From: Nymphaea colorata
Lineage: Eukaryota; Streptophyta; Magnoliopsida; Nymphaeales; Nymphaeaceae
Length of the DNA: 64,000 nt
Direction: 5' to 3'
NCBI RefSeq assembly: GCF_008831285.2
Contig: NC_045140.1
Location: forward strand, 17,668,370 to 17,732,369
Shown: piece after piece, positions 9,533 through 63,431 of the stretch
Numbering within the stretch: the stretch's first letter is position 1
Layout: each line of letters begins with the position of its first letter
Notes under the pieces: generated by a model
Database searches by the model: none
What the model saw: only the letters and a program-made list of their open reading frames with translations
What the model was told of the DNA's origin: nothing
Program-made: the position numbers and the translations under genes

Positions 9533-9649
9533 GATTGTTTAAACCATGTTGTTATTTCTTGTAGTAAAACTATGGAAGCGAGAATTAAGAACTTATACCA
9601 TAGAAAAAACCACTGTTGTCCGCTTGTCTCAAATGAACCAAGTTTGATG

Positions 9650-10760: not shown

Positions 10761-10855
10761 GTGGTCACATTTCTCATTCACTGCTTTACATTGAAACATT
10801 CTTGCCATTGATCAGAAAGATTCAGGACGTTTAGAGAATAAAAATGGCGACATCT

Positions 10856-11385: not shown

Positions 11386-11399
11386 GGTGCACCTTCATT

Positions 11400-15109: not shown

Positions 15110-16260
15110 TGGACCAAGCAACACTGCTTTCTTGTTTTTCTAATTTTTTTTTTATCTTTTGCTTTTTCTAAGTGTTTATGCTTTTACCTTTTTGATAATT
15201 TGTTTTCAAATTTACAACATATTGTTTTGTTGGTCCCATCATAAACGATTTCGATTCTGATTTGTTTCACTAGGTTTTGAAATTCCATTCAGAAACCCAT
15301 TTAAATAATGTTTGGATCGATTGTGGTTTTTGACTTTTTTATTTTTCAGCTTTAACAATTTATCTCAAGTGGGATATTTTTATGTATTAATGGGAAACCC
15401 CATTTTAAAAACCTGGTGATGGGAGGGTGGTTGGATTTTATCATCTCAATTCATATGGGTAGGTCTCCACACATGCTCGAGTCATAAAACTTCCGTTTAA
15501 TTCAAGTCGAGTTCTGTGAACAAGCTATGTGAACAAGCTGTTCGACTCGACTATATACTGTGGAGCTCGAGCTCGACTTGTTTAACTAATTGAGTCAATT
15601 TCTCGACTTGTTTAACTAATTGAATCAGTTTCACGTAATCGAGTCATGCCAAATCTAAATGAATCGAGTTTTCATAATTCAAATTCAAGTATAAATTTAA
15701 ATTCAAACTCGAGTTTTCAAGCAAGTTCGAATGGGTCTAAGCTGGCCAGGACTATGGGAATTGGACTCACCCTTCCTAGCTTCGGATCAGAACGGAAGAA
15801 ACTAGGGCAACAAAGAGAAAGCTATCTTTTTCTTCTTCCTCAGTAAGGGGTAATGAAGAGAAAGTGCAGACAAATAAAGAAGCAAGAATGGTTCAATCGG
15901 ATGCTGGGGGAGAGGTCTCCCTACCTTTATTAATTAGGAAAAATGAAAAAAATGAGGACCCGGTTGTTCCATGGCATTGTGGTGCGTGACGAAACATAAA
16001 AAAGAATAGTACAGGAGAAAATATACAAAAAAACCAAGGACGGTTCCATCCATCGAAGAAAAGAAAGGAGCAAGAATGGATCTCTTGGGTTCTGTCTTTC
16101 TGCTGAAAAGAGCGATGGTACGATAACTGTATCGTCTTCTCCCCCTTTTCCTGTTGGATTCTTTTGTAAAGGAGATTTGGGGTTTTGCCTCCTTTACTTA
16201 GCCTTCTGGGTTTTCCCTTCTCTCTGCTAATGAAAAGGGTTCTTGTCTTCTTGCTCATTG
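15110..16260 (+). repeat. Segmental duplicate block 2 (upstream of F-box gene C)
   Basis: This block is collinear with 9650-10760 and lies directly before gene C. Shared landmarks are the T-rich start, the ACGATTTCGATTCTGATT region, the CTCGAG/GAGCTCGAGC-rich middle near 15480-15740, and a CT-rich end with TTTTGTAAAGGAG. With block 1 it gives a tandem-duplication period of about 5.5 kb. No gene is visible in it. Confidence 0.6.
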
Positions 16261-16491
16261 GGTCTTTACTTTCTTGTCGCCTGCGCGATATTGGAAATCC
16301 AACGTGTTAAGTGGTACAATACTGACTTGATCAGGTTCCATTTCATCCAAGTGACCCTGAAGTCGCGGTTGATTCTATTTAGGCTAAGCCTAAATTTTTC
16401 TGTCTTCCCGTTGGATCATTTTCTTCCTGCTCCTTTGGCTCGTTGGCATTCTCAACATTCAAAAGTAAGCCAAACTGTGTATAGCGCTGAA

Positions 16492-18467
16492 ATGGAGGGC
16501 ACAACGGCATGCAGAATCAACGAGTTACCAGATTCAGTTTTGTTGCACATCCTTTGCTTTCTCCCCATCAAAGTTGCAGTCAAAACCAGCGTCCTGTCCA
16601 AGAGATGGAGGTACCTCTGCACAGCCATTCCCTCGTTGGAGTTTGACCACAAAGACTTCCCACTTTCCATGGAGGAGGCTGTTAGACAGCAGTTGAATCG
16701 GTTGGATTCCCCTATAAAAGGGGCTGATCTCTTCACAGTTTTGAACCAATTCCTGTTGAGCCATGATGGGCGCCTTGACTCATTTAACCTGAGCTTGACT
16801 TTGAAGAACGATTCAGAGAGGAGACTACTTGGTAGATGGATTCACCACGTTATTGCAACAAAGAAAGTTACAGAAGTTTATCTTAAAACTTTTCTTAGTG
16901 ATAATCCCAACAATTGCTACAAGCTGCTGTTAACTCCATTCAGTTGCCGCTCCATACTGCAGTTGAGGTTGAGTCGTTGCTATTTTGATTCTCAGGAAGG
17001 TAATGAGGTGGTTCTCTCCCACCTCAGAAGCCTAAGCTTGCGGGATATTCTTACGAATGAAGGGCTCCTCTCTAGAATGTTATCTGCTTGCCCTCAACTT
17101 GAAGACTTAAGCCTTGATTTGTTCTCAAGCAACACAAATGACATGCAAATTGTTATCCCAAAACTCATGAATTTGAGGATAGTATACTCTGAATTTTCAA
17201 ATCTCAAGCTCATTGCACCGTCCCTGCAATTTCTCGAGTTTGATTGTCGTTCTAGGTTCACTGACAAGGCTTGTGTAAGTAAGCTCGAGGGGGATCTTGT
17301 TCGCTTAAAATCTCTCAAGGCCTGCACCTGCTTTTTTGAAGTACGTACTGCTTTGGCCTTCTCTCCTCATTCTTTTGCCTTTTCTCATCTTTTTTTCCTG
17401 ATAAAATGAATGACTATGGGATTTTGAAAACTAAAACATTATTCTGATATTGCCATGTTATGTAGTGACTTAGGAAATTGACAATTTTCTTGTGATTTAT
17501 GACCGAGTTCTCCAGGTGGCCTGTCAATTTTAAACTCAGTGGCTCTTGCTGTTGCATAACAAGATGGTCGCCTATGCAACGTTTCTGCAATAACAGTAGG
17601 CAAACTGTAGATTGGGTGATTCGGTAATAGTTGTTAAAATTTGAAAAGTGTCGTCTTATAAAATAACTGCTGTGTTTAGTTCGTCGGGATGCAAGTTTGC
17701 TTTAGTTTTCTTAGGTTCTGGTCCATTACTGCTACACGTTTCGTTGTTTGATACAAAGAATTAGAGCTTTCCTTGATGAGATTGGGAAGTAGAGGGGCTC
17801 CTTTGGGGGTTGTGCAAATGGGATAAGCTGTTTCATCTGCCTCATGAATTTCTATGTAGAAATTAATAAGTTTGATGTGACAAAACCAAGTATTATAACA
17901 TCTTTTAATATCTTTGTGAAGGCTTTCTATAAGGCAAACAAAGGCGTGGAGCATCCACAATTCAATGACTTGGAAGTGGTCGCAATACATCCATGTTCAA
18001 GGGAATTGGGACTTGAATACGTTGCTTCCCTGTTGGGAAATTGTCCAGTTTTACGTAGTCTTTATATTGAAAGTGAGTTTTTTAGAACAACTTGGCTCTT
18101 ATCTCTCTCTCTCTCTCTCTCTCGTCTGCTACCCTTTTGTCAAATATTTGTACTGAAGCTGGTCTGCTCTGTGAACTTTGTTGTGATAGAGTGCAGCTCC
18201 CTTTCTTATCCAAATGATGATGCTGTATATGAATCTGTTGTTCGTGTGATTCAAAACCTCCGTAGGATGAGCGTGGAGTCCTTCAACGGGACACAATCTG
18301 AAATGAAGTTGGTGAAATATGTTCTGAAGGGTACACCATCACTAGAGCTTGTTACAATAGATGTTGCTTCAATGGATGTGCTGGCACTGTCTGTCATAAA
18401 TGAGCTTCTGCACTTGCAGAAAATGTATTCACAACTGGACCTGAAACTTCTTTGCACTAGGAAATGA
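16492..18467 (+). CDS. F-box/LRR/FBD-type protein, cluster member C
   Basis: Exons 16492-17340, 17922-18072 and 18190-18467 join in phases 0 and 1 to give about 425 residues. F-box: RINELPDSVLLHILCFLPIK, about residues 8-27, then SVLSKRWRYLC. Leucine-rich segments: ILQLRLSRCYF, LRSLSLRDIL, LEDLSLDLFSS. FBD-like end: LVKYVLKGTPSLELVTID. Exon 1 is 9 bp longer than that of B, through an insertion after the DFP motif. The second intron contains a CT microsatellite (about 18103-18123) that stays open in frame but should be spliced out. The ATG at 16492 matches paralogue B (MEGT). The sequence is clearly more diverged from A and B than they are from each other. No defects seen; substrate unknown. 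Confidence 0.85.
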
Positions 18468-25259: not shown

Positions 25260-25520
25260 CGAAGGTGCATGCCTCTATTAAATTAAAGATAGACGCTGCC
25301 ATTGATGTGAATCTCGGTCCTTCCTCTCCCTCTCTCTGGCCAGAGGTCCGCCGCAGATGCCGGTGTCCGTCCGAGAGCGGTGAATCTCTCTCTCTCTCTA
25401 AATGACTTCCCAGCCGGCCGTCCTTCATACGTACAAAGAGTGCTTCGGAGCCCTCTTCTCCGGATCCCTCTGTTTTCTGGCGGCAGAACAGGAAGCCTTC
25501 TTTTTTTCGATGGCGTCTCT
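25260..25520 (+). repeat. Leader-like repeat, copy R1 (5' of F-box relic D)
   Basis: This CT-rich segment (landmarks AGACGCTGCCATT, AGAGGTCCGCCGCAGATGCC, GTCCGTCCG, GAAGCCTTC) recurs inverted at 47765-48000 (R2) and, in part, in the same orientation at 58905-59075 (R3), with a short piece also at about 58155-58195. Here it leads directly into relic D, so it looks like the promoter/leader of an F-box gene that has been copied elsewhere. Confidence 0.6.
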
Positions 25521-34490: not shown

Positions 34491-35478
34491 CGTCATTAAA
34501 ATGAGAAAATTATGATTTTGAGATGGTCCTTATCTAAGGACTAAAGTGGATTCAGGTTTTCACATACCTAGGTTAAGGCCACAAGTGGGTCACTAGGCTA
34601 ACCCGGTCTGGTTTCAGACAAAAGGTGCACGTAGATGCAAGGAGGTCCAGGTGCATGCTAAAACGACAACACAAGAGAAAACTACATTCTATATGCATGA
34701 TTTAAGCAAAAACGTGAAATTAAAAGAAAAAGACCAGGAAAAGGGGGCACACCTAACCCCTATGCCTACCCAAAAAACATTAAACTAAATCTATTCTAGA
34801 AAATAAAGATGTTAAACTACAATGTTATTAATGTAATTAAGAAAAATATAAGAGCGAAGCATAAATACGCTAAACTAAACATGCTAAAAGCAAAAATAAA
34901 TAAATAAAACACGCATAAAGAAAAAGAAAGAAGGCACTAAATTGCAAATAAGAAAAGAAAGAATAGGAGAAAAGAAATTGCCTGACTCTGTGACCTCTAC
35001 ACTGAGCCTCGTTGGGTTTAGGTTTAATGCAATGTTGTAAGAAGCATACGCTTCTTACAAAAAAAAAAAAAAAAAAAAACGACTCAAGCTGTTTTTTTAA
35101 AAAAAAAAAACGCCTTGAGACAGCCTCAAGGACAGTTTAGTTTCTTTAATTAAAAAAATAAAATTAAACAAAAAATGGTCAAGCTTCACACATAGCCCTA
35201 ATTAACCATGTTTGTATCCCTAAATCCCCTATTTTCAATCCAGATCACCTGTGAAATTCAACCAGCTCTGTGAAATTCAACCAGCTGCACGTTGTGAAAT
35301 TGCTAAAGGCCGGAGGCTAGAGCTGCGGCTGGTGCAGGCTTGGAGCCATCACCCAACATGGGAAATCCTGTAAGTCTCTCTCTTTGAATCTCTCTCTCCA
35401 TAGCTGATATGTTCCTTTTTGAGTCTCTTTCTCTCCATGGCTGACACCAAACGTAGGTTGCCACTTTTCTCTCTGTCC
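34491..35478. other. Low-complexity intergenic DNA
   Basis: Mostly A-rich, with long A runs at about 35058-35078 and 35098-35112. A short tandem repeat of GTGAAATTCAACCAGCT occurs at about 35250-35285. No gene seen. Confidence 0.35.
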
Positions 35479-35588
35479 ATGGCTGGCGCTAGCCATGGCC
35501 ACCATCTCGCTCTCTCAGCTTTCTGGCAGCCACATGGCTGGCGCTAGCCATGGCCACCATCTCGCTCTCTCAGCTTTCTGGCAGCCAG
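35479..35588. repeat. 55-bp perfect tandem duplication
   Basis: Two adjacent copies (35479-35533 and 35534-35588) start ATGGCTGGCGCTAGCCATGG and end in TTTCTGGCAGCCA. Each copy contains the palindrome CCATGGCTGGCGCTAGCCATGG or its core. The copies appear identical apart from the last base, so the duplication is recent. Confidence 0.7.
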
Positions 35589-36230
35589 AGTTGGCGCCCT
35601 CTGCCGCTCTGCGTAGTGCGTATGTATGTTGCTGCTCCCTGTCTCCCACACGTCAAGCCAGGTTTTGGGTTTTGTTCATAGCCCACATCGGCACAACAAC
35701 GAGTCTCGCACATGGCAAGCCGTTACGCTAGCTTCAGTAGGATTTTAATTAGGTTTTGGTTTTGTTCATAGCCAATTTTCAAATTTTGTGGGAATCTACA
35801 CCCAAATCTAAATGGTATTATACCATTATTTAAACAAAAGTCTTGTTTCCATTACCAACAACAACATCAAGCAAATTTAATTCCTTGATATCAAGCAATG
35901 CAATAGAGAAAATGTTTGGCAGCATGTTCAATTGATAATTGCAGGCGGTCCCTTTTCGAAAATGACTTGATTTCGTTGATGTTGCCCTCATATATAGTCT
36001 ATTGGAACTTGAAACATAGCTACCCACAAAGTTAAGTTATGTCGGTTATTGGTCTACAAGTTGGATTTGGGGTCCCTTGTATTCAAGTCTAAACGCAATT
36101 ACACAATCTGATTAAGCCTAACCCAATAACGGCTATATCCCGTACCATACAGGCTATTTGAGTGTTTAGTCGATGAGAATCTCATGATACAGTTTTAGTT
36201 CATTCCTTTCCTTGGGAAGTGTTCACTGGG
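35589..36230. other. Intergenic, left flank of the large palindrome
   Basis: A short direct repeat of AGGTTTTGGTTTTGTTCATAGCC-like sequence occurs near 35659 and 35752. No coding signal and no element border is seen at the palindrome edge. Confidence 0.35.
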
Positions 36231-38018
36231 TTCAAAGCATCCCAACCTGCGTGGGTAGTATAGTAGTTTCAAAAGCAAAGCCTGACAGTATCCGGGTTTC
36301 GCTAACAACTGAAAGAGACCAAGTTTATGTAGGAATCACACCTATGAAGTTTTGTCAGTATATATGGAGCTGAGCGGCAACGCTAATAATTTATTTACAT
36401 CTAATTTAGATGTATAAACCTGGTCTATTCCATGTAAGTCCAGACATATTACATAGATAGGGCGCTTGAGAGAAGGAAAAATAGTGTTGAGATTATGAGA
36501 TGAGGACTAATTCAAACAATTTTAGATTGTTAAAGGGCACCAACAAGGGGATTGTTGAAGGCATCAATATGCAAAATCAAAAAATTCTGAGGGAAGGTTG
36601 GTGTTTTGGCATGAGAAGGCCAGAGATGAAGCGGAGAGGTGCAACTGGTTTCACACTTGTTCGTTGACAAGAGAGGAAAATCAAATAATTCTGGCCGTCG
36701 CGAGAACAGCCGATCAAGTGACATCGTGCTAACGTTCTATTGTTTTTAACAACAATAATGGCTTGAGAATGTATTAAAACATAAAAGTACATGTTGTTGC
36801 AACATACCACGCCAAAAGCTGCTCATACTCCAACAAGGATGCATATCCCGTGGAGGGCTGCTCATACTCCAAAAAGCTCTTCGGAGTGTGGAAGTTATAA
36901 GTAGAACCCATCTCGGCATCTCCAAGTTCTTTCTCTGTTTATATTCCATCACTACCAGTCTACGAAACATAAGATGCTCCTGTAATGACACCAACCGTGT
37001 AAGCATAAGACTCCATAGACATAAACGTGTAAATTTGGAAAACCAGAAAAGAAAAAGAAAACATCCCATTGTTTCAAAATTAGGACGGTTTCGTATTAGG
37101 ACATCAAACGGTCGTTTACACGTTTATGTCTATGGAACCGTTTGATGTCCTAATACGAAACCGTCCTAATTTTGAAACAATGGGATGTTTTCTTTTTCTT
37201 TTCTGGTTTTCCAAATTTACACGTTTATGTCTATGGAGTCTTATGCTTACACGGTTGGTGTCATTACAGGAGCATCTTATGTTTCGTAGACTGGTAGTGA
37301 TGGAATATAAACAGAGAAAGAACTTGGAGATGCCGAGATGGGTTCTACTTATAACTTCCACACTCCGAAGAGCTTTTTGGAGTATGAGCAGCCCTCCACG
37401 GGATATGCATCCTTGTTGGAGTATGAGCAGCTTTTGGCGTGGTATGTTGCAACAACATGTACTTTTATGTTTTAATACATTCTCAAGCCATTATTGTTGT
37501 TAAAAACAATAGAACGTTAGCACGATGTCACTTGATCGGCTGTTCTCGCGACGGCCAGAATTATTTGATTTTCCTCTCTTGTCAACGAACAAGTGTGAAA
37601 CCAGTTGCACCTCTCCGCTTCATCTCTGGCCTTCTCATGCCAAAACACCAACCTTCCCTCAGAATTTTTTGATTTTGCATATTGATGCCTTCAACAATCC
37701 CCTTGTTGGTGCCCTTTAACAATCTAAAATTGTTTGAATTAGTCCTCATCTCATAATCTCAACACTATTTTTCCTTCTCTCAAGCGCCCTATCTATGTAA
37801 TATGTCTGGACTTACATGGAATAGACCAGGTTTATACATCTAAATTAGATGTAAATAAATTATTAGCGTTGCCGCTCAGCTCCATATATACTGACAAAAC
37901 TTCATAGGTGTGATTCCTACATAAACTTGGTCTCTTTCAGTTGTTAGCGAAACCCGGATACTGTCAGGCTTTGCTTTTGAAACTACTATACTACCCACGC
38001 AGGTTGGGATGCTTTGAA
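36231..38018. repeat. Near-perfect palindrome, 882-bp arms, 24-nt spacer
   Basis: The left arm (36231-37112) and the right arm (37137-38018) are inverse copies. Every stretch compared by eye, including both ends, the centre and several internal blocks, matches without difference. Coordinates of paired points always sum to 74249. The spacer is 37113-37136. Outside the arms the flanks (ACTGGG to the left, GGCGCTGT to the right) differ and show no target-site duplication. Reading frames appear in mirrored pairs and have no recognisable domain. One arm contains a short internal repeat (GGAGTATGAGCAGC, twice). It is either a very young inverted duplication or an assembly artefact. Confidence 0.9.
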
Positions 38019-39938
38019 GGCGCTGTACAAAGGTTAGTAAATAAAATAAAATTGTTTGATTTTATCATAGAAGTATCAAAAGCATTGAAAATAGTTTTGT
38101 AGATGTTCTTTCAAGAGAATAGAGATTACAAGAAAGGTAAAGGAAAAAACTCGCACAGAAAATGACTAATTATGTAAATTCTTATGCAAATGCAGAAGAT
38201 AGAGATCCCAAATCTTAAAGCAGATTTCGAAAATTCTAAAAGCACAGTTAAAAGAATAGATACTTTGAAGAACCAACTAACCGTCCTTAAGTAAATTACC
38301 AGAATGTACCAAACTAAAAAACTCCAAAAAAAAAGTGAATAACGATTGAAACCATATAAGAAGAAAATAAACTTAAAACAACAGAGAAGAAAATTTTCCA
38401 AAAGTATAATCTGGACGATAGGTTCAAGAGACCAAAAATAAAAACTACACCAACGAAAAACGAAAAACAGAAAGCCAAACCATATTAGTAAAAATCACCT
38501 ACAAAACTTGAAAGAGGTCACTAACTTCCTAAATAACAACCCCAAGGAACCAATACACGACTTTACCATTAACATCATATAATTATTGGCTATTACACAC
38601 AGTAACTTTCCTGAAACATGTAAAGCTACAAAGAGATATTTTAAAAAACAATAAAGCCGAACTCATATGTGTCTGATCCTTTCGTTGCTTGGTATTAAAT
38701 GAAAGGATACAATTAATCTTAGCCAAAAAGAAGAGAAAGGTGTGATTTAGAACAATGGCGGTACGCTCCTTTTATAGCCCTGTCACCCCCGCCACTTCCA
38801 CCCACCCATCGATACAGGACTAAATAAGTGAAAGTCCCATATGTATGGTCATCATATGACAAAGCAATTTAGCAATTTTGCAGCATCATAAAATTTTCTT
38901 GCAAGTTTTAGTCCCTCGGCTCTCTATGGCACGACCCTTTTGCTTCTTCACTTTTCGAAGCTGGCAGCCGGACAAACACCTTTTCCCGATACCCACTTTA
39001 AATTTTCGCCGGAACGATGCCCAATGGCTCTGAGAAATCTTGACTACACCAGAAAATCGACTGCTCCAGTCGGTCGGAACAAAATGGAAGGGGAATAGAA
39101 AGGTTTCCCACTTGAGAAGAAACATGGAAGGGATTCCTGTTCGGCAGTTCCAAGGGATTAGAGCCAGAAGGACTGAAGTCCCTGAACCCCCAAAAACCTG
39201 GATGCGGTTGATGGGAAGAGAGATCGTCAAGCAGTGTCGCGAGAATCAACCAGAAAAGGATTTTTTCCTTTGCTTCTTGACGTGGTGAAGGAGCCGTTGA
39301 AGGTTCCGGTGTCCTAGAATATCTTTTGGTCTTCCATAGCTGTGTCGATGCTCATGGGATGGCCCATTATGAGTGTCATGGTTGGCATTTGGTATGACGT
39401 AAAGGCTCATGAATGTTAACCATCAATTCAAGAAGAGAAGCCAGTAAGTTTATTTTTTGCAACGGGAGCATTGTAGAGTTCTTGACCAAGCAGAGAGAAA
39501 CCGTTCCCGCTCTCTGATACGAACGCTGCCAGGAGAGACTCCCACAGCCATATCTGGTGCGCAGATGGTTTGTATCTGCTCCTGCAGATAGAAATTGTAT
39601 ATACGCTAGCATATTTTTGAAGGAAAAGTTCCCCAGTTAGTCATTTGTTTTGGTTTTTGTTACAGTGCTTAATGTAAATCCGTCACTGGAAGTGAGATTA
39701 ATCTCCTTAAAATTTTTGTCCCTCGAATTGGTGTTAGACAGAGTTGTAAGTCATTTGAGGTTATCCCTTTCTCTTCTTTTTTGTACGTGTAAATTTGGTT
39801 TTTTGAATCTTTTTTGTACCTTTTTCGTTTGTACATGTAAATTTTGTTTTTTCAATAAAAGGTAAGGAGCCAACTGTAAAGGCTCATAATGATTACTATG
39901 TTATGCATGAACAAGGGCAGAGCCATAATTCTTTCCCA

Positions 39939-39978
<40 letters not shown>

Positions 39979-42900
39979 TTCATTTAGCTTACATAAAAAA
40001 ATTAAAAATCTATATGTTTACCCCTATTAAAATTTCAAAACTATAGTTTTCCCCTCATAATGAAAAGTTCTTGGCTTCACCACTCTGCTCAGCTCTATGG
40101 ATGAACATCCTAAACTGATGAGGAGAACCATGGTAATGTATGCATTAGTTGTCAAAGAGCCGTTGAAAATCGTTCTACTGCTCAATAGCATTTGGTTTTC
40201 ATAGTGGTAGTTCTTGGTATCTTGATTATCCCCAATCCAAATCCTTTACAAAGAGTTGTAGTTGTTTGGCATTAGGAACACTATATGAGTCTTTTGTAAA
40301 TCCACCTTAAAATTATGGTATACCCCTGACTATACTTTTGATGCTAATACACCCACTAATTGAGTGTGAGTTGGAATACATGAGCTGATGAACTCGGGTC
40401 CAGATCCAACCTGGTTTAGATTCCAAGTTATTTAGCCAATAGGTCAGATTTTTTACCTACCTATTTTAGTCTACACCGACAAAGTTAATAAACCATTCTA
40501 GCTATCGAACTTCACAAAAACCATTCATGATTTAGTTCATACATTTAAACATATTTTTTGACGTATATATATTGTTTTGCTCATATACTTCATTTACGGA
40601 CATAATTAACAACATCATGCATAGCATATCTAAACTTAGATAAAAAGTATAACATAAGTTTCTAGACATCAAGAACAAATCTCATTTATATGTTGACAAG
40701 CACATATATTTCAATTCATTAGCACAAAACTCTGGTTCTCAAGTATTAATCCAAGTAATAATTTTACAAAACATAAGCACATGAGACTTATGTGAGATAA
40801 ACTAGATTCAGATCCAAATCTCATTGTAACATTTATCCAAGCACAAATCTATAATGCTTAATCAAAACAAATACAACATGATTCTATGACCATCAACAGA
40901 TTGATATGCAACAGTTAGCAAAGTTACGAACATATATATGTGCATGCTAAAACAACTTAGATCCTTTCGTAATCATGCAACAGATTATCCATAAGTATAT
41001 GTTATCATGTTTTATTGTTCCCAAAGTTTCATTGTGTTGAAGTCAGTAGTCAAACGAACTCAGACCGTGGAACCATATTAGGCCAAACTATGTTCGGGTC
41101 CAGATCCATAACAACATTTACATACACATTTGCAAAGGAACTCATCCAAATCTGAAATCAGTTTACAGCTCCCGACATGGATGTATTTTCAAACAAAAAC
41201 ACTTCTAAGTCTAATTACAGAAATATAACTTTTCTCAAGCAAGCTAAATCCAAATCCATTTTCAATAACTAATACATTTTGGAGCAAAAAAAATATTTTA
41301 TTTAAATATGTTCACAAACAAATTAAAAAAAAAGTTTTCCAACATTCGACATCCCCAATTACTATCAACCGCCATTGTTTATAAGCCTTTGCAAAACAGG
41401 TCAAATCTAAACTAAATTTTTGGAATGCTACATTAACAGAAACCAAATTTTCTAATCAACTTGAACCTGGTCTCAATAAAAACCAATTTTGGCAATTCCT
41501 GGCTGGATCCCGCGAGAACGGCGCAATTGATATAGTCTTTCGCTAGACAATGCTGTTCCCCTGATGGCTGGAAAGTTGGGAATTTGTTCAGAATTTTTGT
41601 CTCCCTCTTGATTTGGCATTTCCGGCGATATGCCAGAAACCGGCCGCCTGAGGTCATTGAGATGGGTGACACCAACCAGCCTGAGATTTTTTGCATTTTA
41701 TTTTATGGTATTGGATATGAAAGATAACTTAGCATTCTGTCACGCCTCTTATATAAAGTTTGATATGTTAATCTGAATACATTCAAATTTGGGAAAATCC
41801 AAAAAGTTTTTTTTTTTTTTCTATAAATCAGCAGTTCGGTCGTGTATTCATATGATCATTGGTGTTTGGTAGTGCCACAAGCAATTGAAATGACACAGTA
41901 GACAATAACAATAGCATTATAGCGGGAATAAGCAGCTTAAATCACTTTAATAATTGAAGAGAAAAATTATCTCGTGAAATCCTTAAGAACGAGTGAGATT
42001 GAATCTTTTTCCTTTTAGTTCTGTTTCCAAACAGCGGCCAATTAAAAGTGAAATATTCATGTTAGTTACTAGAAAATATTCCAATAATTTACACCTGCAT
42101 TTTAGTTTCTATTTTTTTAAAATGCACCTCACATGTTCATTTCTATGTTCAGCACATTTTCGAAAAAATCACTTCCCCATTGATAGATTCAGTATGTTCT
42201 GTTTTTTTTTTTCGGTTTTCCAAAATAAAGCTTCGAAATCTCTTAAACAGTCCATCACAATAAAATCAATCTACTGAATATAAATACGGTGGAGAAATTT
42301 CAAAATATTCAATGAATTATATTGACAAAATCAATACACCCGCTAAATTTTAGTCGCTCAAAAGTTTCTTGAATTTATGGAAATGCAGGTGCCAAGTCTG
42401 AACCTATGCCTGATCATTTACCTACCAAGAAGGTCTACAGTCGCGCAAAGTTCATAATATTGTCCTCTTCCCATTTATTTTAAACTAAAAAATTTATGGA
42501 ATCGATAGTATTTCACAAAACATGATCCACGCCTGACTATGAACACAACAAATAGTCAAACCGGTTAAAGTTTGTGGTGTTTGTATCTCTGAGATAAATC
42601 CGAACACATTTCGTCACGATCACCAGACTGTAACGATTCAGACCCGATCAGAAGGATTGGATAGTTTTTGAACATTCAGAACCAGTTAGAATCTAGACCC
42701 GACAATGGCAAGGTGGCAAAGGCACCCACGGCGCTCTGTTCTCATCACGCGGCTGCGTGACTTACACCGTTCCTCTCGTCCACTTATATAGGGAGAAGCA
42801 GACCCCAACCTCTCCTCTGATCGATACAGGACTAAATTTTGAGACATCGAAGAACGCGTCTCTCAACGTCACTCGCTCGGTAACAGATCCCAACCCTTCC

Positions 42901-44498
42901 TCTGACCCCATTTGATTTTGAAGTCGTTTAGACGAAGATGGTAAAGAAATTTAGATCTGATTATTAATAAGGTTCACATGAATAGGAATATGACATATGA
43001 TTGAGATCCAACTCAAGTTCATGTAGATACCAAATCTTGTGCAACTAGGTTTTGAAAAGTATCAATGTTAATTCTTGAACCCATTTTTACTTTGATTCCT
43101 TCGTTTAGTCGACTTTGATCTGAATCCAATTTTTCATGTATCTGGTTGATTTGAACCCAATCCATTTACGTTCCTCCCACCAACACTGGGAAAGACTTGA
43201 TACATTTCTAATGGAGCTTGGGTGCAGATTCAAACATTTTTGTAACCAAAGAATGACAAAGGAGGTTGCTTCCACTTGGGAGCCTGTATCCATTTAATCA
43301 TGATCTGGATCCAGTCTCTTGTTGGTCCAATCAAGGAGGAAACGAGAGTTCAATCGATGGTTGGCCCGTCTGGCTCTGGTTTGCCCGTGTTGATTAAGCT
43401 TCGGTTCAAAATGCAAGTTTGGATCTGGATCTAAATGATCACAACCCAACAACCAATAAATTTTACTTACCTTTCATTAGAAGTATGATGCATTTCATAT
43501 TCCCAAGAATGCATCTCTAGCCATCTCCTTCATGCAACCATCTTCTCTTTCATGGAGCCACATATAAGTAAGGGTAAGCACATATATCAGATCCATGTCG
43601 GATATAACTACATATTACCATATCTAAATATTTGGATCTTGCTTTATTTAATCTCAAATCAGTTTCATATTAAACCATAAAACATAAAAGCTACAAAGCC
43701 ATATCCAAAATTCTGTATTTAATCGGATTTAGATGTGTGGCCACGATGATACAGATTGAGTTGTAAATGCATGACAGTGCCCCGCCAAACTCGGTTTCGG
43801 CCCGAACTGGTTCCATTGTTCCCGATTCATAATGTCCCAAAGTTCATAATGTCCCAAAGCAAGAAAATGATGGCCATTGATATCACCTGGTAATCATGAT
43901 GCATCTTGGTGTTCTGCATTGGTAGGGATGTTAAATAATGGGATATACTTTTGACTGTATTCATTTTTTCGAATATATGACTTTTACAATCACATCAAAT
44001 CCAAATTTTTGACAAGATTCAGCCTATTTTCAAAATGTAAGAATATTGGATATGGGATATTTATTTAAATCTAAATCCTATCTTAATCAAAATTCCGATC
44101 AGATATACATATATGAATACGATTGGATGTCATTTCTTAAATATGAATCTGATCTGATTTATTAATGGATATTACTTTTTTTTTTCATAACCAATTTTAC
44201 CGAAATAGTTCGGACGGATATCTAATGCAAATTGGACATATTGACATCCATATCTATTGTATAATCAATGTTTTAGATGTGGTCAATTGTGCAACTAATT
44301 GAGTTTTTGACCCACCATTAAAAGATGTTTATACATAATTATGTCCTATACTTCATGCATATTTATACATTTTTCCGTGACCCCTATGTTTACATGAGTG
44401 TTTGCGCAAGTCGGACCGAAAGTGGTGTTTCTAGTGAAAGAAGGGGAGAAACACTTAGAAACTTACCGTTAAACGAGGAGAACTGAAAACAAGTGCTA
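38019..44498. other. 6.5 kb without a supported gene
   Basis: AT-rich DNA with a TA/TG microsatellite at about 39940-39980 and a T run at about 41810-41820. The string ATCGATACAGGACTAAAT occurs at about 38808 and again at about 42822, the latter just after a TATA-like TTATATAGGG (42784). A 17-bp tandem repeat (TTCATAATGTCCCAAAG) lies at about 43825-43860. A dispersed-repeat-like block (about 43920-44280, listed separately) precedes the acetolactate synthase relic. No open frame has coding character. Confidence 0.4.
43920..44280. repeat. Degenerate dispersed repeat, copy 1
   Basis: This block is rich in AATCCGAT/GAATCTGATCTGATTT motifs. A related block in the same orientation lies at 47190-47560, which shares GAATCTGAT and TCTGATCTGATTT, a TTGGATAT and a CATTTTTTTAA-type stretch. 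It probably represents two old copies of one transposon family. Confidence 0.4.
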
Positions 44499-45895
44499 AT
44501 AACCAACTACTTGGTAAAAAGTGAGGTTGTGAATGGATCAAATTCGGATAGTGACATCCCACACATCGTCCGTGAGGCCTTCTTCCTCGCCTCCTCCGGC
44601 CGCCCGGGCCCTGTCCTAATCGACATCCCCAAGGACATCCAGCAGCAATTGGCCATCCCCAACTGGATGCAGAAGATGAAACTCCACGGCTACACTCAGA
44701 GATTGCCGAAACTCCCCGTCTCTTCCCAGGTCGAGATGATCGTTGACATGATCGCCAGTGCAAAGAAGCCCGTTCTGTATATCGGTGGTGGTTGTATCAA
44801 TTCCGGCGAGGAGCTCCGCCGGTTTATCGAGCTCACTGGCATCCCCGTCACGAACACTCTAATGGGTCTCGGCATCTTTTCCTCTGCTGCTGATCTTAGT
44901 CTGCAGATGCTGGGGATGCACGGGACGGTTTAAGCGAACTATGCGGTCGATCAGGCCGATCTGTTGCTCTCCTTTGGTGTGAGGTTCGACGATTGGGTGA
45001 CCGGAAAACTGGAGGCGTTTGCGAGTCGGGCGAGCATCGTTCATATCGATATTGGCCCAGCTGAGATCGGGAAGAACAAGCAGCCCCATGTATAGCTCTG
45101 TTCAGATATCCGGCCAGCGTTAACGAGTTGTTGGTGCAGAGGGAGGGGGTTCTTCATAGTCTAGACTTCGCAGGGTGGAGGGTTGAATTGGAGGAACAGA
45201 AGCGGAGATGGCCATTGAGCTTTCAGTCATTCGGCGATGCGATCCCCCCGCAGTATGCCATCAAAGTGCTCGACGAATTGACTGAGGGGGAGGCGATCAT
45301 CAGCACTGGAGTCGGGCAGCATCAAATGTGGGCGGCTCAGTGGTACAAGTACAAGAGGCCTCGGCAGTGGCAGACTTCTGGTGGATTGGGGGCAATGGGG
45401 TTCGGTCTGCCGGCTGCAATAGGAGCCGCAGTCGGCAGTCCAGGTACCCTGGTGGTTGATATTGACGGGGACGGCAGCTTCATCATGAATGTGCAAGAAT
45501 TGGCCACCATTAGAGCGTACAACGTGCCTGTGAAGATCATGCTACTGAACAACCAGCATCTGGGTATGGTGGTTCAGTGGGAAGATCGATTCTACAAGGC
45601 CAATAGAGCGCACACTTACCTCGGAGATCCAGCAAAAGAGTCCGAGATTTTTCCTAACATGTTGAAATTTGCAGAGGCCTGTAATATTCCAACCGCCCGC
45701 GTGACTCGGAAGTCGGAACTAGAGGCAGCCATTCGGAAGATGTTGGACACTCCAGGGCCTTGCTTGCTGGATGTGATTGTCCCGCATCAGGAGCACGTCT
45801 TGCGGATGATTCCCAGCGGAAGGGCATTCAAGGATGTGATCACGGAGGGAGATGGCAGGAGAAGTTACTCAAGCTCTGGCTTCATCGTCAAGTGA
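44499..45895 (+). pseudogene. ALS: 5'-truncated acetolactate synthase (AHAS catalytic subunit) pseudogene
   Basis: The sequence covers roughly the last 60 percent of plant ALS, the thiamine-diphosphate enzyme of plastid branched-chain amino acid synthesis. Landmarks are [71 protein letters not shown], the cofactor motif [29 protein letters not shown] and [18 protein letters not shown]. Missing are the transit peptide and the N-terminal domain with the catalytic Glu. Defects: TAA at 44931 (where a Tyr is expected after MHGTV), TAG at 45093, a one-base loss near 45120, an insertion after NYLV near 44515, and RFDDR changed to RFDDW. GG of IPSGG is GR. The tail is extended ([10 protein letters not shown]). 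There are no introns, as in normal plant ALS. Clearly non-functional as a synthase. Confidence 0.9.
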
Positions 45896-47764
45896 ATTGG
45901 TTTAATTGCTAGTCGAAGTAGTCTTGGTTTAATTGCTAGTAGTCTGTTATTTATATCTTATGCATTTTCAGTAGATTGGAGCTTATGATTTAGCCTAAGG
46001 AATTAGTTGTTCATCTGCTAATTCTTTTGGACACAGTTAAGTATAACATTGTGGGTGATTTATAATGTACTGATTTCGGCTCTTCTGTCAGCTTTTATTT
46101 AACAAGGAAAGAAGTTTACAACAGGTGCTGAAGACCTTAATGGTTGATTAGGAAGTTGAACTTGACAATTGAAGTGCTGGTAAGTACATATTATTTTCTG
46201 AAAATATGTTTCTAAAACACGTTACGGCCTTCTTTTGTACTAGAGAAAACAATCTGATCATGAATGTTATTCATAGATACAACAATCAAACACTAGATCT
46301 AATCACATCCACGATCAAATACAGGATATGGTCACACTATTTATTCCCTAAAACAAGAATAGCATGAGCTTCAAACAGGTGTTTACATAACACGATGTTA
46401 AATGCCGACCGGTTATATCCAATAATACCATAGACTAATACAAGATTGCCCAAGGGCCCTATCACTCAGCTTTTCAAAAGATTTCACAAATTGTATGGTC
46501 ACAATATCCTTGAGATACAATCAAATTCTGAAACAGTAAAATTGGTCTGAAAGCCCATAACAAAGGAAATTAAGATCGAAGTAATAAGCTTATGGGAGTT
46601 CGCTAGAAGTGAAACTGAAAGGCAAAGTTCTGTACATAATCGAGAAAATATGTAAATGAGGAAAATTTCACTGAAGTATTCATATAACACTAAGAACTTT
46701 TGTGGGTCTGTGCGGGGCAATTGACCTCACAGTGTCCGCCCCTGTATAAATGAAGAGAAGAATTGCAACCGAAAATACTTCTGTTGTACATTCTTCGATG
46801 TTATCTTCAATTGCAACATGAACGTGCTGATAGCTTTACGTGATTTGGAGAATTCTATTTAATAATTAAAAAAGTTGAAATTCAAAAGTTATTGAAAATT
46901 GAAAGTAAAAATGAAATTAAAAATTTTCTCTTGATAAAACATAAAGGTTGATCATTGGAGGGCTATTGTTCGGCAATATACGCCATATCAATGGAGGGTG
47001 GATTAGGAGTCCTCCATGGAGAAAAGATGGCAATGGAGGACGCTACTGTCGATGCTCCCCCATCTTTGTCAGTGTTATCGTTTTGTCCTTCGCTTCTGGT
47101 GCATGACTTGTAAATCTCAAGCGGAATTTTGAGTAGGGGTGATCCTAAAGTGCTCATGTTTTGAAAATTTCCATCTTGTCGCGGAGTTTGAACAATGTAA
47201 ATGGCTCTGATATATTCGATTATTAATATGAATTAGATCTAAATTTAAAATTTGAATCTCAAAATCGAATCTGGCCCGAATCCTGCTTTTAAATTGACAT
47301 CGGAAGCCGATCTTTTAAATATGCCACCAAATCGGATCCACAATTCTATATTACATAAAATACCGACTTTCAAAATGGATGTTGGATATAAGAAACTTAT
47401 TCAAAGTCAAATGCAAACCCAATGTTTAAATTTTTATTTGAATCTGATGTCATTTTTTTAAAATCCAATTCTGATCTGATTTCTTATAAAGGACCTAAAT
47501 CTTGAGATGGAAATTATTCAGGCGTTTCAATTTCATAAAAAATAGACAATAGATAAACAATGGATATTTATGATTTGAACCTCAAAAGAGGGCCTTAAAA
47601 GGAGGAAAGAACAGGAAGAGTGCTTCTACAGGAAAGTTACAGCGTTTTTTGCCGCATTTTGGAACGCTGACAGAAACTCAATCTTCCAAAACTCTGAGCC
47701 AAATTCATGTGGTGTTGGAACTATTGCGTAAAAGCCAAATTAGTAGACAAAATGGAGAAGAAGA
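45896..47764. other. 3' flank of the ALS relic and intergenic DNA
   Basis: A short direct repeat (TTTAATTGCTAGT) follows the stop at about 45901 and 45928. A dispersed-repeat block at 47190-47560 is related to 43920-44280. A GA-rich stretch begins at about 47750. No gene seen. Confidence 0.35.
47190..47560. repeat. Degenerate dispersed repeat, copy 2
   Basis: Same family as 43920-44280 by shared GAATCTGAT, TCTGATCTGATTT and TTGGATAT motifs in the same order. Too diverged to define ends. Confidence 0.35.
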
Positions 47765-48390
47765 GACAGCCATCTGCCGTTGGAAAAAAGAAGCTTCCTG
47801 TTCTGCAGCCGGAAAACAGAGGGCTCTGAAGCACACTGTGTACGTATGAAAGACGACCGGCTCGGAAGAGGGAGAGAGAGATTCACCGGCTCGTGGACGG
47901 ACACCAGCATCCGCGGCGAACATCCGGAGAGAGAGGGAGGGAGAGGGAGGTCTGAGTTTAAGCGAAGAAGGTGGTGTACTCAGATATATGAGACTTTTAT
48001 GGCAGTTGCCTCTACTCACAAGTGCGCGACACGCGATTGACTATATCCTTTTGTCTATTTTACGTCGTGTTAAACAGCGTTTTCACCAAAAGACAAACAT
48101 GCATTAGTGGCGCAACAAAACTTCGGGGAATACTACAAGATTCTTTTAGTTGATGGATTTTTTGAGAGAAAACCCTAATTATTTCTGGTTCATTTTCCTT
48201 CATTGGCTTTCAGTTCAATTCTTGATTGTTTGATCATGTTGATAGTTCATCGCGGAGAATTCCTCTCTTTCGCTTCATCTAATACCTTACAATTTTATAT
48301 TACTTATAGCAGAGAACTAGGGATTCACCAAATTTAACTATGAACAGGAAAACGAAAAAACGTCATCGATTGAGTTTCATGAAGCCAATG
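47765..48390 (-). repeat. Leader-like repeat, copy R2 (inverted)
   Basis: Positions 47765-48000 are the inverse of R1 (25260-25520), sharing AAGCTTCCTGTTCTGC, ACAGAGGGCTC, CACCGGCTC and GGACGGACACC. Positions about 47870-48390 are the inverse of R3 (58560-59075), sharing CGCGACACGCGATTGACTAT, TTCGGGGAATACTACAAGA and GATTGTTTGATCATGTTGA. Only the leader-like part is common to all three copies. No F-box coding remnant follows R2 on its - strand. Confidence 0.6.
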
Positions 48391-48606
48391 GCACTGAGAT
48401 GGACGAACCATATGCGAAGAAAATCATAACCCGTAGTTTGAAGAGGAGATTTTGTACCTCCAATCAAATATGGCTACAAATGCTTGAATATTTACATGTA
48501 ACAAAGAAAATAAACACAAAATCTAAACCGAGCGTGCTTGGAATCAGTCTTTTGACACAGGTAGGTTCTGAAAGTGGTTTCTTCCTTTTGAAATTATTAT
48601 TTGCAG

Positions 48607-59436: not shown

Positions 59437-60284
59437 ACCTACGGTTATGCTGCTTCAAGATTTTAAGGAACATTCTTTGTAAAGCCAGCCTTTTGCCTAT
59501 AATTGCATAAGGGAGACTTTTTTATTTTTATTTTTAAACCTTTGCAAACAAGTTCTGCAACTTTTCATAAAAAAGTGCCCAACCCCACCCGCCCATAAGC
59601 TGAAATAGCCTGCCCTGCATGCCAAATCTTTCTGCCAATCAAAACATGCTGGGAGGTGACCATAGAGGGCGTAGCGTAGGTGCCCATGTTACTTGAACTA
59701 ACAACCAGCCGCCCGCTAAAACTACCGTGCCTATCACCCCTTAGAGCGATATCCATTAACTCTAAATTGAAATCAAATGGCTACCAACGCTTATTTTTTT
59801 GATATAGAAAATATAGTTCTAAGTATGGTAATGACAAAAGGTAGCTTAACTATATCAAAAACTAGGCTAAGCTACCTTTTGTCACTACCATACTTAGAAC
59901 TATACTTTCTATATCAAAAACCGTCAAAAATAAGAGTTGGTAGCCATTTGCTTTCAACTTAGAGTTAATGGATAGCGCTCTAAGGGGTGATAGGCATGCT
60001 AGTTTTAGTGAGTGGCTAGTGGGTGGCTGGTCACTAGTTCAAATAATATGGTCACCTCCCAGCATGTTTTGATTGGAAGAAATATTTGGCATGCAGGGCA
60101 GGCTGTTTCAGCTTAGTCTTAGGCCTAGGGTTTATGGGCCGGCGGGGTTGGGCACTTTTTATGAAAAGTTGCACCACTTGTTTACAAGCGTAAAAAAAAA
60201 AAGGTCTCCCTTTTGCAATTATAGGCAAAACGCTGGCTTTAAAAAGAAAGTTCCTTAAAATCTTGAAGCAGCATAACCGTAGGT
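59437..60284. repeat. Fold-back P2: imperfect inverted repeat, arms about 412-417 bp, 19-nt loop
   Basis: The left arm begins ACCTACGGTTATGCTGCTTC and the right arm ends with its inverse. The tip of the stem is GACAAAAGGTAGCTTA paired with TAAGCTACCTTTTGTC around a loop at 59849-59867. Arms differ by scattered substitutions and a few small gaps (net 5 bases), so it is older than the palindrome at 36231. No terminal target duplication was seen. It could be a fold-back transposon or an inverted duplication; a transcript would form a long hairpin. Confidence 0.8.
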
Positions 60285-60321: not shown

Positions 60322-63300
60322 CCAGTAACCATCTTTTTCATTCAACGAAATCCTCACAGCAACATCTCCGACAATGGCGTTAGCCATAACATCAGCAAGA
60401 AACAGATGATTCCAAAAGTCTTCTACTGACCTCGTCCCTCCCAACAGCAAAAAGCCCCATTCTTCCAAAGCATCATCGCACAGGCCTTAAGACTCAGCAG
60501 CAGTTTTTGGAGGCCACCTCAACATTGTGGTGTTTAATAGTTCCAACTAAACAGGTGCCAAAACAGGATGATCTCCTCAAAGATCAAACTCTAATTGGTG
60601 CTTGAGCGCTATTTCTGATCGATCGATGGCCTCCACAAGGGGCAGGATCACCCTTTTAGGAGGAAACAAATTAAGGGCAACAACAGTTATTGTGACGAGG
60701 AAAAGCTAGATCCAAACTTGGAGAAATCCCAATCTCGTCACAATACACAGAAATTATAAAACAGAGATTGGGTGGTAGGGTTTGGAACAAAGGCGATCAA
60801 AAGAAGCTGGTTGGTTCTACAATAAGTCTCCAAACCAAGTTGGTTAGTTGTAAAGACCCAAGTTCAATGGATATCCCAAAGAAACTGTTGAGAGTTCACG
60901 CTCGACCAACACTAGACAGGAAGCAACTGGTGTCATCTAGGAAGCGACATCCATCCCACACTTTTTCAGGCGTACGTTCTAAGTTAAGTGGGTATCTCAC
61001 TAAAGTGTGTTCGATTGCGTCCAGTGGGAGCGCAGGTCTGAAGATGACCGGTCCTTCTCCAAAAGGACGACCAGTTTGTATGGATCTTAATATTTATAGT
61101 CCACTGACTTGAAATCTTTTTGGCTAAATCGTCGAGGTAAAACAAACCTGTCACACATGAGACTACCCTGGACCATGCCCGGAAGCCAAAATCCAAGCAC
61201 AAATTCGATATCGGGTTGGATCAGGATGTTGTTGTGGCTACCAAAAGCTTGAGGTTAATCTCCTACTTTCTCTGCAGTGTAATAACGAAAGACGAAACTG
61301 CGATTGCGAAAAGCTGCTGAGGGAGTAAAAGGTGGGGAAAAAGGCTAGCTACCGGCTATTCCGTCGGTTGGTCGCCTGCGGAATCCCGTCCCAGTTCACT
61401 TCTCAGTCTCCCTGATCCGAGACTTCTTTCTCCTGGTTTGGCTGCCGATTTGCCGAAAGCTCTTATCTCATTTCGGGATTGCTAGGGTTTACAGTCAAGT
61501 CAAATTCGTAAAACAACTCTCATATATTCATTTATTTTCTTTCTGGAGGTGAGTGCCTTCCCAAACAGGAGCCTTAAAAATTTGCTGAGTTATCAGTCAT
61601 CGGTCTAGGTGTGGCGAAGGCACAAGGAGAAGGAAGGAAGTCGGTGGGTGGTGAGTGATCCCTTTGTCTGAACGCATGGGGATTTATTGGCTTTTGGTAT
61701 AACAAGGAAGCGACGAGCAATTGAGGAAATTGTCCGTTTGAAAAAATTGCTGAACGCAGGAAAAGCAAAGGCATTTGTGCAGGAAACCACCTCCTCTTCT
61801 CTTCTTAATGCAATTTTTTCAACGGACAATTTCCTCAATTGCACGTCGCTTCCTTGTTATACCAAAAGCCAATAAATCCCCATGCCTTCCTCTGTCAGAC
61901 AAAGGGATCACTCACCACCCACCGACTTCCTTCCTTCTCCTTATGCCTTCAACCGATGACGATAACTCAGCAAACTTTTACGGCTCTTGTTTGGGAAGGC
62001 ACACACCTACAAAAAGAAAATAAATGAATATATGAGAGTTGTTTTACGAAATTTGACTTGACTGTGAACCCTAGCAATCCCGAAATGAGATAAGAGCTTT
62101 CGGCAAATCGGCAGCCAAACCAGGAGAAAGAAGGATCGGATCAGGGAGACTGAGAAGTGAATTGGGACGGGATTCCGCAGGCGACCAACCGACGGAATAG
62201 CCAGCAGCTAGCCTTTTTCCCCACCTTTTACTCCCTCAGCAGCTTTTCGCAATCGCAGTTCCGTCTTTCGTTATTACACTGCAGAGAAAGTAGGAGATTA
62301 ACCTCAAGCTTCTGGTAGCCACAACAACATCCTGATCCAACCCGATATCGAATTTGTGCTTGGATTTTGGCTTTCGGGCATGGTCCAGCGTAGCCTAAAG
62401 CGGTTGCCAAGCCCTTCAATCCATGAATCTGATGGTGTGACAGGTTTGTTTTACTTGGATGATTTAGCCAAAAAGATTTCAAGTCAGCGGACTATAAATA
62501 TTAAGATCCATACAAATTGGTTTTCCTTTGTGACTAGATTGGAGAAGGACCGGTCGTCTTCAGATCTGCGCTCCCACTGGACGCAATCGAACACACTTTA
62601 GTGAGATACCCACTTAACTTAGAACGTCCGCCTGAAAAAGTGTGGGATGGATGTCGCTTCGTATATGACACCAGTTGCTTCCTGTCTAGTGTTGGTCGAG
62701 CGTGAACTCTCAAAAGTTTCTTTGTGATATCCATTGAACTTGGGTCTTTACAACTAACCAACTTGGTTTGGAGACTTATTGTAGAACCAACCAGCTTCTT
62801 TTGATCGCCTTTGTTCCAAACCCTACCACCCGTGCTTTATAATTTCTGTGTATTGTGATGACCTTGGGTTTTCTCCAAGTTTGGATCTAGCTTTTCCTCA
62901 TCACAGTACACAGAAGAAGAAGAAAACTAATCAAATATAAACGAATTATATATATATTTTTCTAACTTGTAATGGTATGGATTCTCATTTATTGTTGTTA
63001 TGCATACCGAATCTGTGCCAATACAAATGCATAGTTGGATCAATTTGTGGGGTCAAAATAACTGTTGTTGCTCTTAATTTGTTTCCTCCTAAAAGGGTGA
63101 TCCTACCCTTGTGGAGGCCATCCCATCGATCGATCAGAAATAGCGCTCAAGCACCAATTAGAGTTTGATCTTTGAGGAGATCATCCGCATTTGGCACCTG
63201 TTTAGTTGGAACTATTAAACACCACAATGTTGAGGTGGCCTCCAAAAACTGCTGCTGAGTCTTAAAGGCCTGTGCGATGATGCTTTGGAAGAACGGGGCT

Positions 63301-63431
63301 TTTTGCTGTTGGGAGGGACGAGGTCAGTAGAAGACTCTTGGAATCATCTATTTCTTGCTGATGTTATGGCTAACGCCATTGTCGGAGATGTTGCTGTGAG
63401 AATTTGGTTGAATGAAAAAGATGGCTACTGG
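60322..63431. repeat. Fold-back P3: imperfect inverted repeat, arms about 1.43 and 1.62 kb, 59-nt loop
   Basis: The left arm (60322-61750) and right arm (61810-63431) pair from end to end. Outer ends: CCAGTAACCATCTTTTTC and its inverse GAAAAAGATGGCTACTGG. Tip: GAAAAAATTGC and GCAATTTTTTC. The right arm carries an extra block of about 150 bp at about 62902-63055 and a smaller one near 62390-62440 (GCCTAAAGCGGTTGCC). The arms otherwise differ by scattered changes. The structure begins 37 bp after P2 ends. A 67-codon open stretch occupies the outer end of the right arm (see findings). Confidence 0.85.

What the first reader, a model, noticed from the sequence alone, without database searches (positions are those of the whole stretch)
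36231..38018. Near-perfect 1.8-kb palindrome with 882-bp arms
All compared stretches of the two arms match without a difference, the arms are separated by only 24 bases, and the flanks differ. Such structures are unstable in replication and are quickly lost or diverged, so this one must be very recent, under gene conversion, or an assembly artefact. If transcribed it would give a hairpin RNA of nearly 900 bp, a classic source of 21-24-nt siRNAs in plants.
Basis: seen in the sequence. Interest (0 to 1): 0.75.

Follow-up and report, generated by a model that had tools for sequence, protein, structure and literature searches.

The report
Fresh DNA-break repair scar, plant chromosome
A plant chromosome carries a perfect 1.8-kb mirror-image sequence that looks like the scar of a recently mended DNA break: one broken end appears to have been copied backwards onto itself, with a short copied patch in the middle, and then joined to an unrelated piece of DNA.

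Summary

It is best read as an inverted-duplication scar of double-strand-break repair. (1) 22 of 24 spacer bases copy arm DNA; 0 of 2000 random window pieces match as well, and 25 of 8126 ordinary positions do, all inside local repeats. (2) A diverged, non-palindromic paralogue 101 kb away is colinear, with gaps, with left flank plus arm 1. So arm 1 is the original and arm 2 the inverted copy. (3) The right flank is a repeat truncated at 38026: seven aligned copies on C7 and C9 continue leftwards with a shared sequence that the window lacks. The palindrome thus sits on a breakpoint between unrelated segments, with 7 filler bases.

No target-site duplication and no second palindromic copy was found. 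Identical arms imply an age under about 0.13-1.1 My at assumed rates, barring gene conversion. An assembly artefact is disfavoured, not excluded; siRNA production is untested. Two older palindromes share the window. The kind is known; this natural example is unusually legible.

The parts
36081..36230 (+). Left flank, resident neighbour of arm 1
   Evidence: Matches the paralogue in two blocks, 36081-36108 (86%) and 36156-36230 (85%); the second lies in one gapped alignment with arm 1 (36156-36775, 78%)
36231..37112 (+). Arm 1, the resident copy (882 bp)
   Evidence: Exact reverse complement of arm 2; paralogue C3:17602128-17603697 matches it and continues into the left flank; about 34 window bases (36240-36275) are missing in the paralogue just inside the edge
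37012..37033 (+). Presumed template of the spacer (its reverse complement is 37115-37136); GTAAA at 37029-37033 is the candidate priming site
   Evidence: 22-nt exact inverted match; microhomology
37113..37119 (+). First 7 spacer bases (CGTTTAC), possibly resident sequence beyond arm 1; the last 5 are the candidate priming microhomology
   Evidence: The same 7 bases occur within 30 nt past the end of alignable paralogue, as do 43 of 21000 window 7-mers; once in both strands of the 9-kb locus. Noticed after the fact; the automatic alignment did not line them up
37120..37136 (+). 17-nt templated insertion (inverted copy of 37012-37028)
   Evidence: Part of the 22-nt exact match; 0 of 2000 random pieces and 0 of 2000 shuffles match as well
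37137..38018 (-). Arm 2, inverted copy of arm 1 (882 bp)
   Evidence: Exact reverse complement; paralogue homology does not enter the right flank
38019..38025 (.). 7-nt junction filler GGCGCTG between arm 2 and the truncated repeat
   Evidence: Bases between the arm end and the first base shared with the C7/C9 repeat family
38026..46018 (+). Right flank: patchwork match to repeated segments mainly at C7:18.6-19.4 Mb, with acetolactate synthase-like ORFs; truncated on its left at 38026
   Evidence: Genome searches with 38019-40018 and 42019-46018 and BLAST of 37959-46000 against six fetched loci; junction alignment. Right end not determined
59437..60284 (.). Older palindrome P3: arms 92% identical, spacer 19 nt with a 13-nt copy of arm DNA
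   Evidence: 94 of 8126 ordinary positions show as long a local match
60322..63431 (.). Older palindrome P2: 1359 of 1411 aligned arm sites identical, spacer 59 nt, no significant spacer copy

Best explanation
The palindrome is a recent inverted-duplication (fold-back) scar of double-strand-break repair, not an element with its own function. Shown: arm 1 is resident sequence, arm 2 its exact inverted copy, the spacer is mostly a short inverted copy of arm DNA, and arm 2 abuts a truncated, unrelated repeat. Inferred: a break just beyond 37119 left a 3' end in ...CGTTTAC. Its TTTAC annealed to GTAAA 81 nt upstream, 17 nt were copied, and the end dissociated. That end was joined, without microhomology, to a second copy of the same broken arm in reverse orientation (sister-chromatid end, re-copied strand or captured fragment). 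The outer end of that copy was joined through 7 filler bases to a second break in the right-hand repeat block. Polymerase theta is the likeliest maker of the templated patch; the 882-bp step would need a replicative polymerase or sister fusion.
For: Exact arms and unlike flanks. 22 of 24 spacer bases copy the arm: 0 of 2000 random window pieces and 0 of 2000 shuffles do as well; in a stricter null that allows natural local repeats, 25 of 8126 positions do. The paralogue is colinear, with gaps, across the left edge, stops at 37087 near the inner end, holds one copy of the 22-mer (up to 2 mismatches) and is not palindromic. In seven of the ten genome matches that begin at 38026-38034 (the seven fetched and aligned) a shared sequence lies left of 38026 that the window lacks. 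No convincing target-site duplication. Precedents, passages only: PMC11724301, PMC10622511, PMC10923293.
Against: The join between the 17-nt patch and arm 2 shows no shared base, whereas one-base homology is described as typical for theta, and snap-back is listed as a minor source of such insertions (PMC5068794 passages). The fold-back insertions of PMC11724301 ran to about 150 bp, so an 882-bp inverted copy needs a further step. The CGTTTAC correspondence with the paralogue was found after the fact and not by the automatic alignment. Pieces of the right-hand block of 400 bp or more are at best 95% identical to relatives, so the block did not arrive in the same recent event unless its source is lost. 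Spacer copying is not general among the other palindromes examined. No empty allele was available.
Confidence: 0.74

Rival explanations
1. Assembly or library artefact: a fold-back read or missed hairpin adapter duplicated the end of a contig, which was then joined to an unrelated contig.
For: Arms are perfectly identical and the palindrome lies at a join of two otherwise unrelated segments. If the genome is Nymphaea colorata, it was built from PacBio RSII reads. Foldback reads are a known long-read artefact (PMC12870357 passages).
Against: No N in the window. The tool in PMC12870357 flags reads that fold near their midpoint; such a read would give mirrored flanks, and these differ. That paper saw no systemic foldbacks in the three PacBio samples it checked (the passages do not mention RSII). 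Templated spacer and filler are repair features. If the species is right, mean read length is about 9 kb (49.8 Gb / 5.5 million reads). Palindromes with diverged arms in the same window cannot be copies made by a read artefact.
Confidence: 0.12
2. Older palindrome whose arms are kept identical by gene conversion, so that identity does not mean youth.
For: Gene conversion between palindrome arms is known (recalled). The right-hand block is clearly diverged from its relatives, so the locus itself is not new.
Against: P2 and P3 in the same window have diverged arms (96% and 92%), so conversion does not keep palindromes identical here in general.
Confidence: 0.1
3. A transposable element with 882-bp terminal inverted repeats (foldback, MITE or Mutator-like).
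For: Long terminal inverted repeats with a short centre occur in such elements (recalled). A near-repeat of 8 nt with 1 mismatch lies near the edges (36230-36237 and 38025-38032). The C9 relative of the right flank has about 1.2-kb inverted ends.
Against: That near-repeat is placed asymmetrically, and its right copy is part of the right-flank repeat family; exact repeats of 6 or more occur at 123 of 500 random site pairs, none here. The own-genome search gave 6 matches: the two arms, two pieces of one non-palindromic paralogue that extends past the arm edge, and two of about 90 bp (the search skips very common words). No Pfam match in 10 ORFs from arms and flank.
Confidence: 0.03
4. A functional hairpin-RNA locus (young microRNA-type gene) that produces siRNAs against the paralogue.
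For: The transcript would fold almost perfectly (central 251 nt: -195.7 kcal/mol, z -35). Inverted duplication is one model of plant MIRNA origin (PMC10004981 passages). A diverged paralogue exists (82% and 72%).
Against: No transcription or small-RNA data; no Rfam match at gathering thresholds in the window; no recognised protein family in the ORFs tested. It is compatible with the scar model rather than exclusive.
Confidence: 0.06

Closest known systems
Fold-back inversions / inverted duplications induced by double-strand breaks (yeast; PMC10622511, PMC11724301; passages)
   Same: Inverted copy of DNA next to a break, short spacer at the centre, short inverted templated piece, joining to another end
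   Different: The fold-back insertions of PMC11724301 ran from 2 to about 150 bp, and those of PMC10622511 are chromosome-scale duplications; here the inverted copy is 882 bp, interstitial, and the spacer itself is templated
Polymerase theta-mediated end joining with templated insertion (Arabidopsis, PMC10923293; C. elegans, PMC5068794; passages)
   Same: Patch copied from within about 100 nt of the break; candidate 5-nt priming microhomology
   Different: A patch plus an 882-bp inverted copy in one scar; the second join of the patch has no shared base; genetic dependence unknown
Inverted-duplication origin of plant MIRNA / hpRNA loci (PMC10004981; passages)
   Same: Perfect inverted duplication with a diverged paralogue nearby
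   Different: No evidence here of transcription, small RNAs or an intact target gene

Membership tests
DSB-induced fold-back inverted duplication | Inverted arms with a short asymmetric centre | tested here: met
   882-bp arms, 0 differences, 24-nt spacer
DSB-induced fold-back inverted duplication | One arm is resident sequence, the other an added inverted copy | tested here: met
   Paralogue colinear (with gaps) with left flank + arm 1 and not with the right flank
DSB-induced fold-back inverted duplication | The distal side is broken or lost | tested here: met
   Right-flank repeat truncated at 38026 against 7 of 7 aligned copies; paralogue sequence beyond arm 1 finds no match in the window except microsatellites and one 46-bp piece
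DSB-induced fold-back inverted duplication | Short inverted repeat or microhomology that primed the fold-back | tested here: inconclusive
   TTTAC/GTAAA fits the 17-nt patch; none seen for the 882-bp copy
Theta-mediated end joining (templated insertion) | Insertion of at least 6 bp copied from near the break | tested here: met
   22-nt match, about 80 nt from the arm end
Theta-mediated end joining (templated insertion) | Shared base at the acceptor side of the insertion | tested here: not met
   The template continues with G after ...GGA; the acceptor starts with A and would be preceded by G if arm 1 continues with C (sequence; criterion)
Theta-mediated end joining (templated insertion) | Dependence on POLQ/TEBICHI | not testable with these tools
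   Needs mutant plants
Terminal-inverted-repeat transposon | Target-site duplication | tested here: not met
   Best exact direct repeat near the edges is 5 nt; one of 8 nt with 1 mismatch, placed asymmetrically; exact repeats of 6 or more occur at 123 of 500 random site pairs
Terminal-inverted-repeat transposon | Other copies with the same ends | tested here: not met
   Own-genome search: 6 matches, two the arms, two the single paralogue, two of about 90 bp
Fold-back read artefact | Near-symmetry about the centre out to the read ends | tested here: not met
   Flanks differ at both edges; tests the assembly only, not reads
Fold-back read artefact | No single read across both flanks | not testable with these tools
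   No reads available
hpRNA / MIRNA locus | 21-24-nt small RNAs from the arms | not testable with these tools
   No small-RNA data

The most novel reading that the evidence does not exclude
This genome repeatedly makes short-spacer inverted duplications by the same break-repair route, some with self-templated centres (P1 22 nt, P3 13 nt), so that palindromes of different ages form a natural series of repair scars feeding new hairpin-RNA loci. P1 would be the newest member, and the templated spacer a signature for recognising such events.
Probability: 0.25. Interest if true: 0.55.

Novelty: new member of a known kind. Interest (0 to 1): 0.36.

Why it matters
Inverted duplications are mostly studied in cancers and yeast mutants, where they are selected or induced. 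Here is a natural, apparently recent example in a plant genome. Several steps can be read from sequence: which arm is resident, what the spacer was copied from, and where the other side broke. Such scars are also a proposed raw material of plant hairpin-RNA genes. The case makes it testable whether templated spacers mark palindromes genome-wide.

Tried and rejected
Transposon reading: rejected on lack of a convincing target-site duplication, lack of same-ended copies, and paralogue homology that runs across the arm edge. Coding function: no Pfam match in 10 stop-to-stop ORFs from arms and flank; of 2 paralogue ORFs one gave a sub-cut-off match (E 0.078); of 10 ORFs from the flanks and P2/P3, two gave only sub-cut-off matches. 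RNA families: none at gathering thresholds. tRNA: none. Viral-contig scan for a 23-nt piece: 0 hits. The bacterial promoter/terminator scan is uninformative for a plant.

Generality test. P3's spacer match: 0 of 2000 random pieces and 0 of 2000 shuffles with 150-bp arm ends, 2 and 1 of 2000 with 400-bp ends, but 94 of 8126 ordinary positions. P2's is not significant: 557 of 2000 random pieces and 381 of 2000 shuffles with 150-bp ends, 4586 of 8126 positions. One search scanned 134,935 bases of fetched own-genome loci (some overlap one another; four loci of the window itself left out) and listed four rows: L017, L021 and L022 without a meaningful spacer copy, and L030, a TA-repeat with 23-nt arms, which I dropped. 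That sample was chosen by homology, not at random. Templated centres are therefore not a general rule here.

The 'loop between short inverted repeats' version of fold-back was considered. It explains a spacer but not why the spacer copies the arm. A one-event origin with the C7 block was disfavoured: pieces of 400 bp or more are at best 95% identical to relatives, though short pieces (58-114 bp) reach 97-98%, while the arms are identical.

Full report
Observation. The two arms (36231-37112 and 37137-38018) are exact reverse complements, 882 of 882, with a 24-nt spacer and unlike flanks. The repeat finder gives 893 nt at 99% because it tolerates a few mismatches outward. The window holds no N.

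Context. Of 10 ORFs scanned, 7 match Pfam families: F-box or FBD (4), DUF679 (1) and thiamine-pyrophosphate enzyme domains (2). One of the latter matches plant acetolactate synthase in the PDB. The window lies in a 407.8-Mb genome of 783 contigs at C3:17668370-17732369. The size resembles Nymphaea colorata (409 Mb, 804 scaffolds, PacBio RSII; PMC7015852, passages). That identification is an inference, not confirmed.

The spacer is templated. Twenty-two of its 24 bases equal 37216-37237 and are the reverse complement of 37012-37033. Against the inner 150 or 400 bp of the arms, 0 of 2000 random window pieces and 0 of 2000 shuffled spacers match as well. Among 8126 ordinary positions, 25 have a match of 22 nt or more within 150 bp. 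Of these, 19 lie in tandem arrays and 6 in a 58-bp direct repeat near 52.3 kb.

Arm 1 is the resident copy. One diverged paralogue lies about 101 kb away (C3:17602128-17603697; 82% over arm bases 46-545 and 72% over 577-857). One gapped alignment, 36156-36775 (78%), crosses the left edge. About 34 window bases (36240-36275), just inside the arm, are missing in the paralogue, and a further block matches 36081-36108. The paralogue shows no match to the right flank. At the inner end homology stops at 37087, 25 bp before the arm end. The paralogue has one copy of the 22-mer (up to 2 mismatches) at the arm position, no other in the 9 kb examined, and is not palindromic. Just past the end of homology it reads ACCGTTTAC, and the first seven spacer bases, CGTTTAC, recur there. 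Of 21000 window 7-mers, 43 occur in those 30 nt. The match is thus unlikely by chance, but it was noticed after the fact and the automatic alignment did not line it up. If these seven bases are resident, TTTAC is a 5-nt microhomology to GTAAA at 37029-37033, across an 81-nt loop, and 17 nt were copied.

The right flank is a broken repeat. From 38026 on, the window matches copies on C7 (18.6-19.4 Mb), C9 and elsewhere. Ten of the listed matches begin at 38026-38034. I fetched and aligned seven of these ten; the three left out are matches of about 100 bp. All seven share a sequence left of that point, and the window departs from all seven. Seven bases, GGCGCTG, lie between arm 2 and the repeat. 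The match to the C7 cluster continues in patches, from different members and in both orientations, to at least 46018, and includes the acetolactate synthase-like ORFs. Pieces of 400 bp or more are mostly 80-95% identical, with one at 68%; short pieces of 58-114 bp reach 97-98%. So the block is older on C3 than the palindrome, or its source is lost. The simplest history is a break within C3 that removed what lay between arm 1 and 38026.

Not a transposon. No convincing target-site duplication, no second palindromic copy found, no Pfam match in 10 ORFs tested.

Mechanism. The anatomy reads as: resident arm, 7 probably resident bases, 17-nt fold-back patch, inverted arm copy, 7-nt filler, broken repeat. 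Published fold-back insertions at breaks work by priming at short inverted microhomology, unwinding, and end joining (PMC11724301, passages). Inverted duplications can also come from sister fusion or hairpin-capped ends (PMC10622511, passages). Templated insertions are a mark of theta-mediated joining in Arabidopsis (PMC10923293, passages). Against a pure theta route, the patch joins arm 2 with no shared base, and snap-back is described as a minor class (PMC5068794, passages). How 882 bp were copied or captured in reverse is inferred; a sister-chromatid end and a re-copied strand are both open.

Age. No differences in 882 paired sites gives 95% upper bounds of about 1.1, 0.26 and 0.13 million years for assumed rates of 1.5e-9, 6.5e-9 and 1.3e-8 per site per year (rates recalled). 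Gene conversion would void this.

Artefact. The foldback paper's tool flags reads that fold near their midpoint (PMC12870357, passages); this locus has different flanks. Reads are needed to settle it.

Other palindromes. P2 (60322-63431, 1359 of 1411 sites identical) and P3 (59437-60284, 350 of 379) lie 37 bp apart. P3's 19-nt spacer has a 13-nt arm copy: with 150-bp arm ends 0 of 2000 random pieces and 0 of 2000 shuffles match as well; with 400-bp ends 2 and 1. Among ordinary positions, 94 of 8126 do. P2's spacer is not significant (557 of 2000 random pieces). Three more short-spacer palindromes in 134,935 bases of other, partly overlapping own-genome loci show no meaningful copy; a fourth row, a TA repeat, was dropped. 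Short-spacer palindromes may be common here, but templated centres are shown firmly only for P1.

Literature on novelty. Six searches (58 rows listed of 112 papers found, some papers in more than one search) showed no title or abstract start about a natural plant palindrome with a templated spacer. I read only listings and the passages named above, so this is weak evidence of absence.

Verdict. A real-looking, recent repair scar of a known kind, unusually legible.

Noticed in passing
window 59437-60284 and 60322-63431: Two older short-spacer palindromes (92% and 96% arm identity) lie 37 bp apart; no clear target-site duplication was seen at either (the best at P3 is 9 nt with 1 mismatch). P3's spacer carries a 13-nt copy of arm DNA.
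   Followed up: partly
window 44487-45895: Acetolactate synthase-like ORFs in two pieces inside a block related to a C7 cluster (84-94%); possibly a degenerate copy.
   Followed up: partly
window 35478-35587: Perfect 55-bp tandem duplication left of the palindrome.
   Followed up: no
L021 (C9:627000-636500), 2001-7998: A relative of the right-flank repeat forms inverted ends of about 1.2 kb (86%) around a roughly 6-kb unit, possibly a transposon with long inverted repeats.
   Followed up: no
L017 1424-2416, L021 1008-1339, L022 6364-6633: Further short-spacer palindromes (95%, 98.7%, 94% arm identity) in homology-chosen stretches of the same genome.
   Followed up: partly
window 6868-18467: Several F-box/FBD-type genes or fragments in a row.
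   Followed up: no
window 25310-25514, 47776-47959, 47895-48470, 58481-59048: Related repeat pieces (75% identity) on both sides of the palindrome.
   Followed up: no
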